From Bacteroidia bacterium (GTDB lineage: Bacteria > Bacteroidota > Bacteroidia > Bacteroidales > JAPLDU01), in the NCBI GenBank assembly GCA_026391255.1, contig JAPLDU010000018.1, forward strand, positions 1 through 64,000: 64,000 bases of DNA, read 5' to 3'. The position numbers were made by a program, and so were the translations under genes. The notes beneath the pieces are model-generated. The model made no database searches, was not told the DNA's origin, and saw nothing but the letters and a program-made list of their open reading frames with translations. Below are positions 37,372 to 58,722 of this stretch, one piece after another; position 1 is the stretch's first letter; every line of letters begins with the position of its first letter.

Positions 37372-37456
37372 GTCCTAATCCTGGTCTTAGACCTAGTTAA
37401 ATTCAGACTAAGACTTACGACTAATGACTAATGACTATTGACTAACGACTAACAAA
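37372..37456. repeat. nuoL-nuoM gap with GACTAAT-type heptamer array
   Basis: The gap carries degenerate CTAGTCC/CTAATCC-like units, then repeated GACTAAT, GACTAAT, GACTATT, GACTAAC, GACTAAC-type heptamers running up to the nuoM ATG. No gene is present. Confidence 0.6.
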
Positions 37457-38956: not shown

Positions 38957-39158
38957 CCTAACCTGGACGAGCCAGAACCAAACAAGAAATCACAAATATC
39001 AAAATACAAATTACAAATAAATCCGAATCAATAAAATAATAAATTCAAAACCAGACATATGCATTTCGTATTTGAAATTTTGATATTATTTATTATTTGT
39101 TTTTTGCTATTTGATTTTTGGAATTTTTTGCCAAAACGCGTTAAGATTTCAGAAATAA
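38957..39158. repeat. ~200-bp interspersed palindromic element, copy A
   Basis: It begins CCTAACCTGGACGAGCCAG and ends with GCCAAAACGCGTTAAGATTT followed by CAGAAATAA. It shares this order of segments with copies at 54059 and 57714. The left half contains CACAAAT and AATACAAATTACAAATAAA. The right half contains complementary TTATTTGT and ATTTGTTTT-like stretches, so the element can fold into a long imperfect hairpin. It sits between nuoM and nuoN. Confidence 0.75.
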
Positions 39159-40619: not shown

Positions 40620-40654
40620 ATTTGAAGATTTGAAAATTTGAAAATTTGAAGATG
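40620..40654 (+). repeat. Left arm of 35-bp inverted repeat flanking mrr
   Basis: This is built of TTTGAAGA and TTTGAAAA octamers. Its reverse complement matches 41674-41708 at 34 of 35 positions. It starts 7 bp after the nuoN stop. Confidence 0.8.
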
Positions 40655-40691
40655 AAAGTTAATAAATTGAAAATTCATTTAACAATATACT

Positions 40692-41573
40692 TTATTTCTT
40701 AATATATTGATCGAAGAAGCTATATTCAACCTCAAAAACAGTTTTTGGTCTGACTCCAAGATGTACAGCTTCAAAAAGTTCAACAAGTTTATTACCATCA
40801 ATAAGTTCAATTGGAGGTGCCCCGTCTCTGGAAGCTTCTCTTTTTGCATCCTCTGAAAAAGTACCTGTTGTAATTATTATTCCTTTTTCAGCCCGACCTA
40901 ACATAGCATTTCTAAAATCACCAACTTCTGCCCGAGAGACCTTTCCTTTATATCTTTTACATTGGAATAGAACCTTAATGCTAACAAAAGGATTTAACTC
41001 TAATATACCGTATCCATCAATTCCTCCGTCTCTGGTAGCTTGAGTAACTACTACATTTTCAAATCCATGTTCTCTAAGTAATCTTTTAGAAATTTGTTCA
41101 AAACCAATTGGTGACAGAGTTTGTAATACTTCCAGCAAAGTTGGAGTAATTTCGGATTCTAAATGTTCTGGTTCTTCCTCCAATTGAATTATATCTACTT
41201 TGGTTTTGGGTAAAGTCTTTTTTGTTTTTTTGTGAAAACTTCCCCATTTCAAAAATACCTCTCTTGATTGTTCAAGTGACAATGTAGAATTTTGCCCTTT
41301 TGGAGTAAGTGTCCAAATACCATGTTTAGAGTCGTCCACAAGTCCTTCCCAAACTAAATATTGTCTCGCCCATGCAACTTGGTTTTGAAATCGTAATATT
41401 CCTGATTTCATTGTTTCTTCAAGTTGTTTGTCAGGTATATTTAAATCTTTGGCAATTTGTGCTGCCACTTCTTTGGGTTTTCCGGAACCACCAAGTTCTT
41501 TTAACCCATTTATCAAAGGACCAAACCATTTGATAAATTCTGCATTTGCCGATTTTTTCGTTTTATTTATCAT
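40692..41573 (-). CDS. mrr: Mrr-type restriction endonuclease
   Basis: This encodes 293 aa. The N-terminal Mrr winged-helix domain (about 1-105) includes FNPFIKG-region equivalents such as WFGPLINGLKELGGSGKPKE, RFQNQVAWARQYLVWEGL and GIWTLTPKG. A charged linker follows. The C-terminal Mrr_cat nuclease domain (about 150-270) contains LSPIGFEQISKRLLREHGFE, the catalytic core TRDGGIDGYG then VLFQCKRYKGKVS (Asp and Q-x-K of the PD-(D/E)xK fold), and KGIIITTGTFSEDAKREA. Mrr enzymes cut modified DNA; no partner methylase is present, fitting a modification-dependent enzyme. It is convergent with nuoN, single, more AT-rich than its neighbours, and bracketed by inverted repeats, which suggests acquisition. 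Confidence 0.9.
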   Translation of the reverse strand: MINKTKKSANAEFIKWFGPLINGLKELGGSGKPKEVAAQIAKDLNIPDKQLEETMKSGILRFQNQVAWARQYLVWEGLVDDSKHGIWTLTPKGQNSTLSLEQSREVFLKWGSFHKKTKKTLPKTKVDIIQLEEEPEHLESEITPTLLEVLQTLSPIGFEQISKRLLREHGFENVVVTQATRDGGIDGYGILELNPFVSIKVLFQCKRYKGKVSRAEVGDFRNAMLGRAEKGIIITTGTFSEDAKREASRDGAPPIELIDGNKLVELFEAVHLGVRPKTVFEVEYSFFDQYIKK

Positions 41574-41673
41574 AATGTATTATTTTTGTAATAAGTACGA
41601 ACACAACCATTGAATAATCGAATAAAATTATTGTATTTCAGTATGTTCCAATGATTTCTTTTTTAAATTTCCA

Positions 41674-41708
41674 CATCTTCAAATTTTCAAATTTTCAAAT
41701 TTTCAAAT
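41674..41708 (-). repeat. Right arm of 35-bp inverted repeat flanking mrr
   Basis: This is the complement of the left arm with one mismatch. It extends into the last codons of the flavodiiron gene, whose stop codon (41703-41705) is formed by the repeat itself. Confidence 0.8.
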
Positions 41709-42893
41709 CATCTTCACTACCAGCGACTTACCATAATTAATACATTCCTCAATTTCTTTCACACCTGGTTCCCAGTTGATTTTCAGGCCTTCAGAAATAA
41801 GCCCGAAACCTGCTTTTTTCAGACAATCATCTATAATGTTCACACATTCGGCATGCCAGCCATAACATCCGAAAGAAGCAGCCATTTTATTATTAAAAGA
41901 TAAGCCTCTGATCATCTCCAATATGCCGGCGATGGAATACATGATTCCCTTATTGATTGTTGGCGAGCCAACCAAAATCAACTTTGACCTGAAGACCTCG
42001 GTAATCAGGTCATTCTTATCGGTTTCCGATGCATTGAATATTTTAACCCGGATATTATCATCTGCGATATTGATCCCTTTCGCAATGTTTTCGGCCATTA
42101 ATTTTGTTCCATTCCACATGGTATCATAAAGAATGGTAACCTGGTCTTCCTGATAGTCTGATGCCCATTCGGCATATTTTTGCACGATCTGCGAAGGATT
42201 ATTTCTCCAGATCACACCGTGGCTCGGGCAGATCATTTCGAGCGGCAGGTTGAATCCTGCTATCTCATTAATCTTTTTCGAAACAAGGTGACTATATGGT
42301 GTAAGAATATTGGCGTAGTATTTTATTGCTTCATCCCAGAGATCATCCTGGTTAACTTCATCGTTAAAAACTGAATTTCCGCAATAATGCTGGCCGAAAG
42401 CATCATTGCTGAATAATATGGCAGCTTTTGTGTAATAACAGAACATACTGTCGGGCCAGTGTAACATAGGAGCCTGGATGAAAACCAACTGCCCTTGCCC
42501 AAGATCAAGCTTGTCGCCTGTTCTGACCGGGATAAAATTCCAGTCTTTATGATGGTGTCCTTTAATAATCTTTATTCCATGTTCGGTGCAATAGATAGGA
42601 ATGTCAGGTATTTGTTCCATCAGTTCGGGCATTGCACCACTATGGTCAATTTCTGCATGATTGACAATAAAATAGTTAATCTTTTTAAGGTCAATTTCTT
42701 CGGCGAGATTCTTTACAAATGCCTGGGCAAAGGGTTTCCAGACCGTATCGATGAGCGCTGTTTTTTCATCTCTCACCAGGTATGAGTTATAGGTTGTACC
42801 GTGGTAAGTGGAATATTCATTTCCGTGAAACATTCTGAGTTTACCATCATTTACCCCAACCCAGAAAATGTTATCTTTAATGCGAATGTTCAT
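41703..42893 (-). CDS. Flavodiiron protein (A-type flavoprotein; O2/NO reductase)
   Basis: This encodes 396 aa, the normal length for the two-domain family. The metallo-beta-lactamase-like domain (about 1-250) shows the diiron ligands in NHAEIDHSGAMPEL, then APMLHWPDSMFCYY, FSNDAFGQHY and CPSHGVIWR. The flavodoxin domain (about 255-395) shows ILYDTMWNGTKLMAENIA, GSPTINKGIMYSIAGIL and SFGCYGWHAE. Such cytoplasmic enzymes reduce O2 to water or NO to N2O with electrons from rubredoxin or F420-type donors; the donor gene is not adjacent. It transcribes away from an array-filled gap. The final residues (KMI) are encoded by the inverted-repeat sequence, so the original C-terminus may have been altered slightly. 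Confidence 0.95.
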   Translation of the reverse strand: MNIRIKDNIFWVGVNDGKLRMFHGNEYSTYHGTTYNSYLVRDEKTALIDTVWKPFAQAFVKNLAEEIDLKKINYFIVNHAEIDHSGAMPELMEQIPDIPIYCTEHGIKIIKGHHHKDWNFIPVRTGDKLDLGQGQLVFIQAPMLHWPDSMFCYYTKAAILFSNDAFGQHYCGNSVFNDEVNQDDLWDEAIKYYANILTPYSHLVSKKINEIAGFNLPLEMICPSHGVIWRNNPSQIVQKYAEWASDYQEDQVTILYDTMWNGTKLMAENIAKGINIADDNIRVKIFNASETDKNDLITEVFRSKLILVGSPTINKGIMYSIAGILEMIRGLSFNNKMAASFGCYGWHAECVNIIDDCLKKAGFGLISEGLKINWEPGVKEIEECINYGKSLVVKMI

Positions 42894-43368
42894 AATTCTT
42901 TAAGTTCGTAAAGTTTATAAAGTTTGTAAAGTTTGTAAAGTTCGTAAAGTTCATAAAGTTCGTAAAGTTCATAAAGTTTGTAAAGTTTATTAAAATTATA
43001 AATTAATGCCGAGTGCCTAAACGCTTAGGAAACAAAACTTACCAACATGTTGTCGCTGATCTTATTCCCGTGAAACAGATTTAATTTTCAAATTTGCACA
43101 TTTTCAAATTAATTTAGTCTCTTCGTCTCCTAGTCTCTCAGTCACTTCGTCGCTTGTAGCCTATTGCCTGATTCAGCAAAGATACTATGAATACTAATAA
43201 GTTACGCCTCAATATAATTATTATTGAAAGACATACTACAAACATCATAAATACCACTTGTTTACGTTCATTCCTTGTTAATCAGAACATTTTTTTTCAT
43301 TTTTGTAAATCTTTTCTATATAAAAATGTTGTATTTTTACGGCAATTTATAATAAATTAGTGTATTAT
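42894..43368. repeat. Divergent gap with ~10-copy GTAAAGTTY 9-mer array
   Basis: 42902-42990 is a tandem array of GTAAAGTTC, ATAAAGTTT and similar 9-mers. After it come TTTTCAAATTT stretches and an octamer-like run near 43118-43155 (CTTCGTCTCCTAGTCTCTCAG type). A short GCCTATTGCCTG unit lies at 43159-43170. Promoters for the flavodiiron gene and the porE-like gene must lie here. No gene is seen. Confidence 0.6.
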
Positions 43369-50584: not shown

Positions 50585-50673
50585 TCAGGTATCAAGAACC
50601 AGGAACCAGGAATCAGGAACCAGGAACCAGGAATCAGGAACCAGGAATCAGGAACCAGGAACCAGGAATCAGG
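50585..50673. repeat. AACCAGG/AATCAGG heptamer tandem array
   Basis: About a dozen 7-bp units alternate between GAACCAG and GAATCAG with very little drift. It begins a few bases after the BatA-like stop. The antisense frame through it is low-complexity and not a gene. Confidence 0.85.
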
Positions 50674-50817
50674 ATAAATCAACATATGTAAGTCATATCT
50701 AATAAACATTTTCAAATTCTCAAATTCTTAATACCTAATTCCTGATACCTGATAATTGATACAATTTTTTTCATTTCCAGGAATTTTTTAATCTTGTTGT
50801 TTTAATTTAACCGTTAT

Positions 50818-51225: not shown

Positions 51226-51270
51226 TAGGCAATAGGCATTAGGCAATAGGCATTAGGCAATAGGCATTAG
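51226..51270. repeat. CAATAGGCATTAGG 14-mer array
   Basis: Three copies of the 14-bp unit (two alternating heptamers) follow one another, ending 14 bp before the next ATG. The same unit family appears at 23124, 23281 (inverted), 43159 and 47013. Confidence 0.85.
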
Positions 51271-54058: not shown

Positions 54059-54260
54059 CCCTAACCCAGACAAGTCAGAACCAACCAAGAAATCACAAAT
54101 CTCAAAATACAAATAACAAATAAATATCAATCAACAAAATGACAAATTCAAAGTAATTTGTTTCGTATTTGAAAATTTGATATTGTTTATTATTTGTTTT
54201 TTATTATTTGTTTTTTGGAATTTTTTGCCAAAACGCATCAAGGTTTCAGAAATAAGATAT
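54059..54260. repeat. ~200-bp interspersed palindromic element, copy B
   Basis: Same order of segments as copy A: CCTAACCCAGACAAG at the left, CACAAATCTCAAAATACAAA and complementary TTATTTGT stretches inside, GCCAAAACGCATCAAGGTTT at the right. It lies just after the membrane TPR gene. Confidence 0.75.
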
Positions 54261-57684: not shown

Positions 57685-57713
57685 TTATATGGATTTACAA
57701 ATTGTGCCATAAG

Positions 57714-57922
57714 CCTAACCTGACCGAGCCAGAACCAAACAAGAAATCACAAATTTCAAAATACAAATTACAAATAAATTCGAATCAATAAAATGACAAA
57801 TTCAAAACCGGTGTATGCATTTCGTACTTGAAATTTTGATATTGTTAATTATTTGTTTTTTGTGATTTGTTTTTTGGAATTTATTGCCAAAACACATCAA
57901 GATTTACGACATAAGGCATTAA
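57714..57922. repeat. ~200-bp interspersed palindromic element, copy C
   Basis: It begins CCTAACCTGACCGAGCCAG and ends GCCAAAACACATCAAGATTT. The inner A-rich left half and TTATTTGT/ATTTGTTTT right half are complementary, as in copies A and B. It lies between the TPR lipoprotein and the ABC ATPase. Confidence 0.75.
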
Positions 57923-58675: not shown

Positions 58676-58722
58676 ATAAAACTCATAACTCATAACTCAT
58701 AACTCATAACTCATAACTCAGT
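58676..58722. repeat. ATAACTC heptamer array
   Basis: About six copies of CATAACT in a row run up to the start codon of the peptidase gene (ATG 58723). The array would lie in its leader or promoter. Confidence 0.85.

What the first reader, a model, noticed from the sequence alone, without database searches (positions are those of the whole stretch)
40620..41708. mrr gene bracketed by a near-perfect 35-bp inverted repeat
The two arms match at 34 of 35 positions, start 7 bp after nuoN and reach into the flavodiiron stop codon. The defence gene is AT-rich and convergent with both neighbours' ends. This is compatible with a mobile or exchangeable defence cassette inserted between core genes. The arms are octamer arrays also seen after nuoK, so they may instead be general repeats recruited by recombination.
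Basis: seen in the sequence. Interest (0 to 1): 0.58.

Follow-up and report, generated by a model that had tools for sequence, protein, structure and literature searches.

The report
Restriction gene between common inverted repeat arrays
A probably acquired DNA-cutting defence gene does sit between two nearly perfect mirrored repeats, but those repeats are a common, strictly oriented kind of gene-spacer in this genome rather than the ends of a defence cassette; the same kind of mirrored array often brackets a different small gene family (four-helix-bundle 'intervening sequence' proteins) across the phylum, a link for which no description was found.

Summary
The inverted repeat is real: 40620-40654 and 41674-41708 match at 34/35 and bracket a complete Mrr_N+Mrr_cat gene (40692-41573, minus strand) between nuoN and a flavodiiron gene. 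Mrr is codirectional with the flavodiiron gene, not convergent with both neighbours.

The arms are not mrr ends. They are two of 128 TTTGAARA arrays in 1.75 Mb of this genome, and are no more alike than random array pairs (P=0.10). None of 47 close Mrr relatives checked has octamer arrays; one (L156) has an unrelated 43-bp inverted repeat. Single-gene brackets of this type number 5 against 2.1 expected by chance, and two of the five are IVP genes.

The arrays are polarised: they mostly start a few nt after a stop codon and point into the gap. Neighbouring arrays within 1.5 kb are inward 24 times, outward 0 times.

The strong association is with PF05635 (23S rRNA-IVP) genes: 9/13 in this genome are bracketed by inverted 7/8-mer arrays, against 28/1233 other genes (p=4e-12). 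It persists in the order (10/25) and phylum (8/29), against 4/214 controls. Three spacers in the window are copies of such an element without its IVP gene.

Best reading: mrr is a horizontally acquired passenger within or between ordinary octamer-array spacers. The empty-site test could not be done.

The parts
40620..40654 (+). left arm, TTTGAARA octamer array pointing away from nuoN
41674..41708 (-). right arm, same octamer array inverted, overlapping the flavodiiron stop codon and pointing away from that gene
40692..41573 (-). mrr: solitary Mrr_N + Mrr_cat (type IV-like) restriction endonuclease, 293 aa; GGIDG...QCKR motif readable in the translation
40655..40691 (.). 37-nt inner flank between left arm and mrr stop
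41574..41673 (.). 100-nt inner flank with the mrr 5' region; not repeated elsewhere in the genome
39192..40613 (+). nuoN, left neighbour
41703..42893 (-). flavodiiron protein gene (ODP lactamase + flavodoxin), right neighbour, same strand as mrr
38957..39150 (.). nuoM-nuoN spacer: copy of a PF05635 (IVP) element without its ORF (related comparison element, not part of the mrr bracket)

Best explanation
The two arms are ordinary members of a genome-wide class of polarised octamer arrays that form the ends of gene-to-gene spacers. An array typically starts a few nt after a stop codon and points into the gap, and a second, inverted array often closes the other end of the same gap. Inverted 7/8-mer arrays of this kind, each with its own unit, are the usual borders of PF05635 (23S rRNA-IVP, four-helix-bundle) genes here, and in another family ORF-less copies are scattered widely. 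I infer that the nuoN-flavodiiron gap carried such array ends and that a horizontally acquired mrr gene came to lie between them, either by insertion into an array-bordered spacer or because two single arms flank it by coincidence. The arms do not define a transferable mrr unit. Shown: the arms, their number, polarity and lack of specificity, and the IVP association. Inferred: the order of events, and that in RNA the arms could form a 35-bp stem placing mrr in a loop, as in 23S rRNA intervening sequences.
For: 435 octamer hits genome-wide, 0 in control. Of 34 consecutive array pairs under 1.5 kb: 24 inward, 0 outward, 10 same-strand; where a stop codon lies behind an array the median distance is 6 nt. 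Both arms in one gap: 18 observed against 3.3 expected; single-gene brackets 5 against 2.1 expected, P=0.057, two of the five being IVP genes. Mrr's arms are no more alike than random arrays (P=0.10), and arms of pairs in general are not either (p=0.72). Ordinary genes such as tsf, a KdpE-like regulator and tadA (named from their sequences) are also bracketed. For genes of 160 aa or more inverted and direct flank matches are about equally common (19 inverted, 28 direct at score >=18). No octamer arrays at 47 close Mrr relatives. Mrr is patchy and has low GC3. IVP association: 9/13 against 28/1233; order 10/25, phylum 8/29, controls 4/214. IVP element without its ORF. Arms pair at 34/35 positions in the predicted fold of either strand.
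Against: No nuoN-flavodiiron gap without mrr could be found, so insertion into an existing spacer is not shown. Interiors of the octamer elements are not conserved, so they are not simply copies of one mobile element. One mrr relative (L156, 72% identical) is bracketed by a 43-bp perfect inverted repeat that is almost unique in its 2.2 Mb genome, which leaves open that mrr is sometimes carried between inverted repeats.
Confidence: 0.6

Rival explanations
1. Coincidence: two independently placed single arms happen to lie in the gaps on either side of mrr; nothing links them.
For: Simulation expects 2.1 such genes and 5 are seen, including two IVP genes; the arms are no more alike than random ones; many single arrays exist (128 arrays, 24 inward pairs).
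Against: Both arms in one gap are strongly over-represented (18 against 3.3), so a pre-existing pair split by mrr is also plausible; the topology is that of the IVP elements.
Confidence: 0.3
2. The arms are the terminal repeats of a mobile mrr cassette that moves as a unit.
For: Mrr is patchy and compositionally foreign; L156 shows a second Mrr bracketed by a near-unique 43-bp inverted repeat; of 89 Mrr loci only these two have a flank match of 20 or more.
Against: No octamer arrays at 47 close relatives; the L156 arms are unrelated in sequence; the arms here occur hundreds of times without mrr and sit against the neighbours rather than against mrr.
Confidence: 0.08
3. The arms are 3' regulatory elements (terminator-like or mRNA-stabilising) of nuoN and the flavodiiron gene and have nothing to do with mrr.
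For: Of 117 intergenic arrays 75 have a stop codon behind them, 50 of these within 15 nt; both arms here directly follow stop codons.
Against: The other 42 have a start codon behind them; in codirectional gaps the second arm lies just before the next gene's start; no G+C-rich hairpin with a T run is visible in the arms (inspection).
Confidence: 0.15

Closest known systems
23S rRNA intervening sequences (IVS) with the S23p/IVP ORF, e.g. Coxiella burnetii (PMC4990558)
   Same: An ORF held between inverted-repeat arms that can form a stem (28 bp in Coxiella, 35 bp here); the same protein family (PF05635/TIGR02436) sits between the arms in the related elements of this genome
   Different: Here intergenic rather than in rRNA; arms are arrays of 7/8-mers; in the focal case the ORF is mrr, not IVP; no RNA excision shown
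MITEs with internal tandem repeats in Bacteroidota, e.g. BrickBuilt of Porphyromonas gingivalis (PMC4596501)
   Same: Intergenic, multicopy, inverted ends, short tandem repeats
   Different: BrickBuilt has short IS-like terminal repeats and 23-nt internal repeats; here the inverted ends are themselves the arrays, interiors are not conserved in the octamer family, and no transposase was identified
Abundant intergenic heptamer direct repeats (TAACTGA; PMC4679880)
   Same: Intergenic arrays of a 7-nt unit, also present in some Bacteroidetes
   Different: Single unit, direct repeats near start codons; no inverted pairing or IVP link reported in the passages read
Solitary Mrr-type (type IV-like) restriction endonucleases
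   Same: Mrr_N + Mrr_cat architecture, patchy occurrence
   Different: Nothing unusual in the protein; only the location between arrays is unusual

Membership tests
Mrr-type restriction endonuclease | Mrr_N and Mrr_cat domains above gathering score | tested here: met
   107.6 bits (cut-off 21) and 68.7 bits (cut-off 29.5)
Mrr-type restriction endonuclease | cleavage of modified DNA | not testable with these tools
   needs biochemistry
IR-bounded mobile cassette (transposon-like) | arms travel with the gene in relatives | tested here: not met
   no octamer arrays at 47 close Mrr relatives; one relative with unrelated arms
IR-bounded mobile cassette (transposon-like) | empty site with target duplication | tested here: inconclusive
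   no relative has the nuoN-flavodiiron junction
IVS-like element | inverted-repeat arms able to form a stem around an ORF | tested here: met
   arms pair at 34/35 positions in the predicted fold of both strands; duplex -41.8 kcal/mol
IVS-like element | encodes a PF05635/S23p protein | tested here: not met
   the ORF is Mrr; two other octamer-armed elements at C23 do encode PF05635
IVS-like element | lies in 23S rRNA and is excised by RNase III | tested here: not met
   lies between protein-coding genes; excision not testable
MITE | conserved ends with copies lacking the ORF of a larger element | tested here: inconclusive
   met for the AAATCAC family; not met for the TTTGAARA family, whose interiors are unrelated

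The most novel reading that the evidence does not exclude
PF05635 (IVP) four-helix-bundle proteins belong to a phylum-wide class of intergenic IVS-like mobile elements whose ends are inverted arrays of element-specific 7/8-mers, with ORF-less derivatives; such elements sometimes carry or trap other genes, and mrr between TTTGAARA arms here (and between a 43-bp inverted repeat in L156) is a defence gene housed in one of them.
Probability: 0.15. Interest if true: 0.8.

Novelty: new variant of a known kind. Interest (0 to 1): 0.5.

Why it matters
It stops a repeat-bordered defence gene from being called a mobile defence cassette on the strength of its arms. It also shows that the arms belong to a strongly polarised spacer class, and that inverted short-unit arrays are a statistical hallmark of PF05635 genes well outside rRNA. 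If that link holds, the old question of whether intervening sequences are mobile elements becomes testable in intergenic DNA, where hundreds of copies per genome are available, and the origin of the abundant intergenic heptamer and octamer arrays of Bacteroidota has a concrete candidate.

Tried and rejected
Empty-site test: nuoN loci of 29 order relatives have no flavodiiron or mrr gene within the held flank (up to 1.5 kb) and no octamer arrays; the window's genome is alone in its family among those held. Pairing by common descent of the two arms: rejected, arms of one pair are no more alike than random arrays. One conserved mobile body for the octamer family: rejected, interiors do not align beyond the two IVP paralogues and one shared 45-73 bp end sequence. 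Repeated mrr flank: rejected, the 100 nt upstream of mrr is unique. Rfam families in the window: none. First pattern search used a meaningless pattern and is ignored. Literature searches gave no description of PF05635 genes bordered by inverted short-unit arrays; the library lacks most subscription journals. No Mrr structure by sequence in the PDB.

Full report
Observation. The inverted repeat is as described: 40620-40654 and 41674-41708, 34 of 35 positions, 1019 nt between. The left arm begins 6 nt after the nuoN stop and the right arm covers the flavodiiron stop codon. The ORF between is a complete 293-aa Mrr_N + Mrr_cat protein, related to PADLOC type IV and candidate defence models. It runs on the minus strand: convergent with nuoN, but downstream of and codirectional with the flavodiiron gene. 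Its GC is 34.6% (9th percentile) and its GC3 19.7% (0.8th percentile). Relatives are patchy: 12 of 295 order genomes at E<=1e-20, with the closest (78%) in freshwater Bacteroidetes genomes. This fits horizontal acquisition.

The arms. Both are arrays of TTTGAARA. The three-unit pattern has 201 forward and 234 reverse hits (up to 2 mismatches) in the 4.08 Mb genome and none for the reversed control. Most order relatives lack it (22 of 198 have any). In 1.75 Mb taken as stretches there are 128 arrays. Where the gene edge behind an array is a stop codon (75 of 117 intergenic arrays) the median distance is 6 nt, and the array points into the gap. Of consecutive arrays closer than 1.5 kb, 24 pairs are inward (+ then -), 0 outward and 10 on the same strand. 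A gap holds both arms 18 times against 3.3 expected. So the typical unit is a spacer closed by two inverted arrays. Interiors of such spacers are AT-rich and mostly unrelated.

Does mrr stand out? Weakly. Its arms score 32 against each other, which 10% of random pairs of arrays reach. In a scan of 1241 genes, inverted and direct flank matches of score 18 or more are about equally frequent for genes of 160 aa or more (19 and 28), and the bracketed genes include what look by sequence like tsf, a KdpE-like regulator and tadA. Genes bracketed by single octamer arms number 5 against 2.1 expected (P=0.057): mrr, two IVP genes and two genes without Pfam matches. None of 47 close Mrr relatives with usable flanks carries octamer arrays. 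With 1-kb flanks, of 89 Mrr loci only the window and L156 have an inverted match of 20 or more. L156, a Sphingobacteriales genome with a 72% identical Mrr, has a 43-bp perfect inverted repeat of different sequence, nearly unique in its genome. One such case does not establish a cassette, but it is recorded.

What the arms belong to. Two inward octamer pairs on contig C23 enclose PF05635 (23S rRNA-IVP, four-helix-bundle) genes 82% identical to each other over 263 bp. This led to all PF05635 genes of the genome (18). Most are bracketed by inverted arrays of 7- or 8-mers, each with its own unit: TAGGCAA/TTGCCTA, GTGAATG/CATTCAC, TACGAAT/ATTCGTA and others. At flank score 18 or more this holds for 9 of 13 with usable flanks, against 28 of 1233 other genes (Fisher p=4e-12). 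In the order 10 of 25, and across the phylum 8 of 29, pass score 16, against 4 of 214 small control genes. Three spacers of this window (38957-39150, 54062-54260, 57712-57920 approximately) align at both ends with an IVP element of the same genome but lack its ORF; the left end of this family has 80 forward and 80 reverse hits in the genome. These look like internal-deletion derivatives of a multicopy element; the direction of change and mobility are inferred, not shown.

Mechanism. Known intervening sequences place a PF05635-type ORF in the loop of a stem formed by terminal inverted repeats, 28 bp in Coxiella, cut by RNase III (PMC4990558). The anatomy here is the same outside rRNA, with arrays as arms. 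For mrr, the predicted fold of either strand pairs 34 of 35 arm positions, so a read-through transcript could hold mrr in a loop. Whether this occurs, and whether it matters, is unknown. The most likely history is that mrr arrived by horizontal transfer in a gap that has such array ends. A pre-existing pair split by mrr and two independent single arms cannot be told apart without relatives that share the junction; none was found.

Limits. Genes were called as longest ORFs of 80 aa or more. The genome is a draft in 161 contigs (97.5% complete, 2.9% contamination). The sampled 1.75 Mb partly favours contigs with octamer hits. PF05635 loci in other genomes were those with the best E-values, not a random draw. 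Flank scores use 250-nt windows (400 or 1000 nt for Mrr relatives). The literature library is incomplete.

Verdict. Observation confirmed with one orientation error. Cassette reading not supported, general-repeat reading supported. The wider association of inverted short-unit arrays with PF05635 genes is the part worth following.

Noticed in passing
38957-39150, 54062-54260, 57712-57920 (approximate): Three intergenic spacers align at both ends with a PF05635-encoding element elsewhere in the genome but lack its ORF; the left end has 80+80 hits genome-wide.
   Followed up: partly
37406-37452, 42902-43002, 50586-50674, 51226-51270, 58680-58720: Many further intergenic arrays of different 7- to 9-mers (GACTAAT, TAAAGTTTA, GAACCAG, TAGGCAA, AACTCAT) in the same window.
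   Followed up: no
L156:106-164 and 1281-1354: Mrr relative bracketed by a 43-bp perfect inverted repeat nearly unique in its genome, with parS-like TGTTCCACGTGAAAC palindromes just outside each arm and an mnmG-like gene next to it.
   Followed up: partly
L274-L302, L333-L361: PF05635 genes across the order and phylum are often bracketed by inverted 7/8-mer arrays whose unit differs from locus to locus.
   Followed up: partly
G000:C28:8946-9587 and G000:C82:17574-18047: Two ORFs without Pfam matches are bracketed by the same octamer arms as mrr.
   Followed up: no
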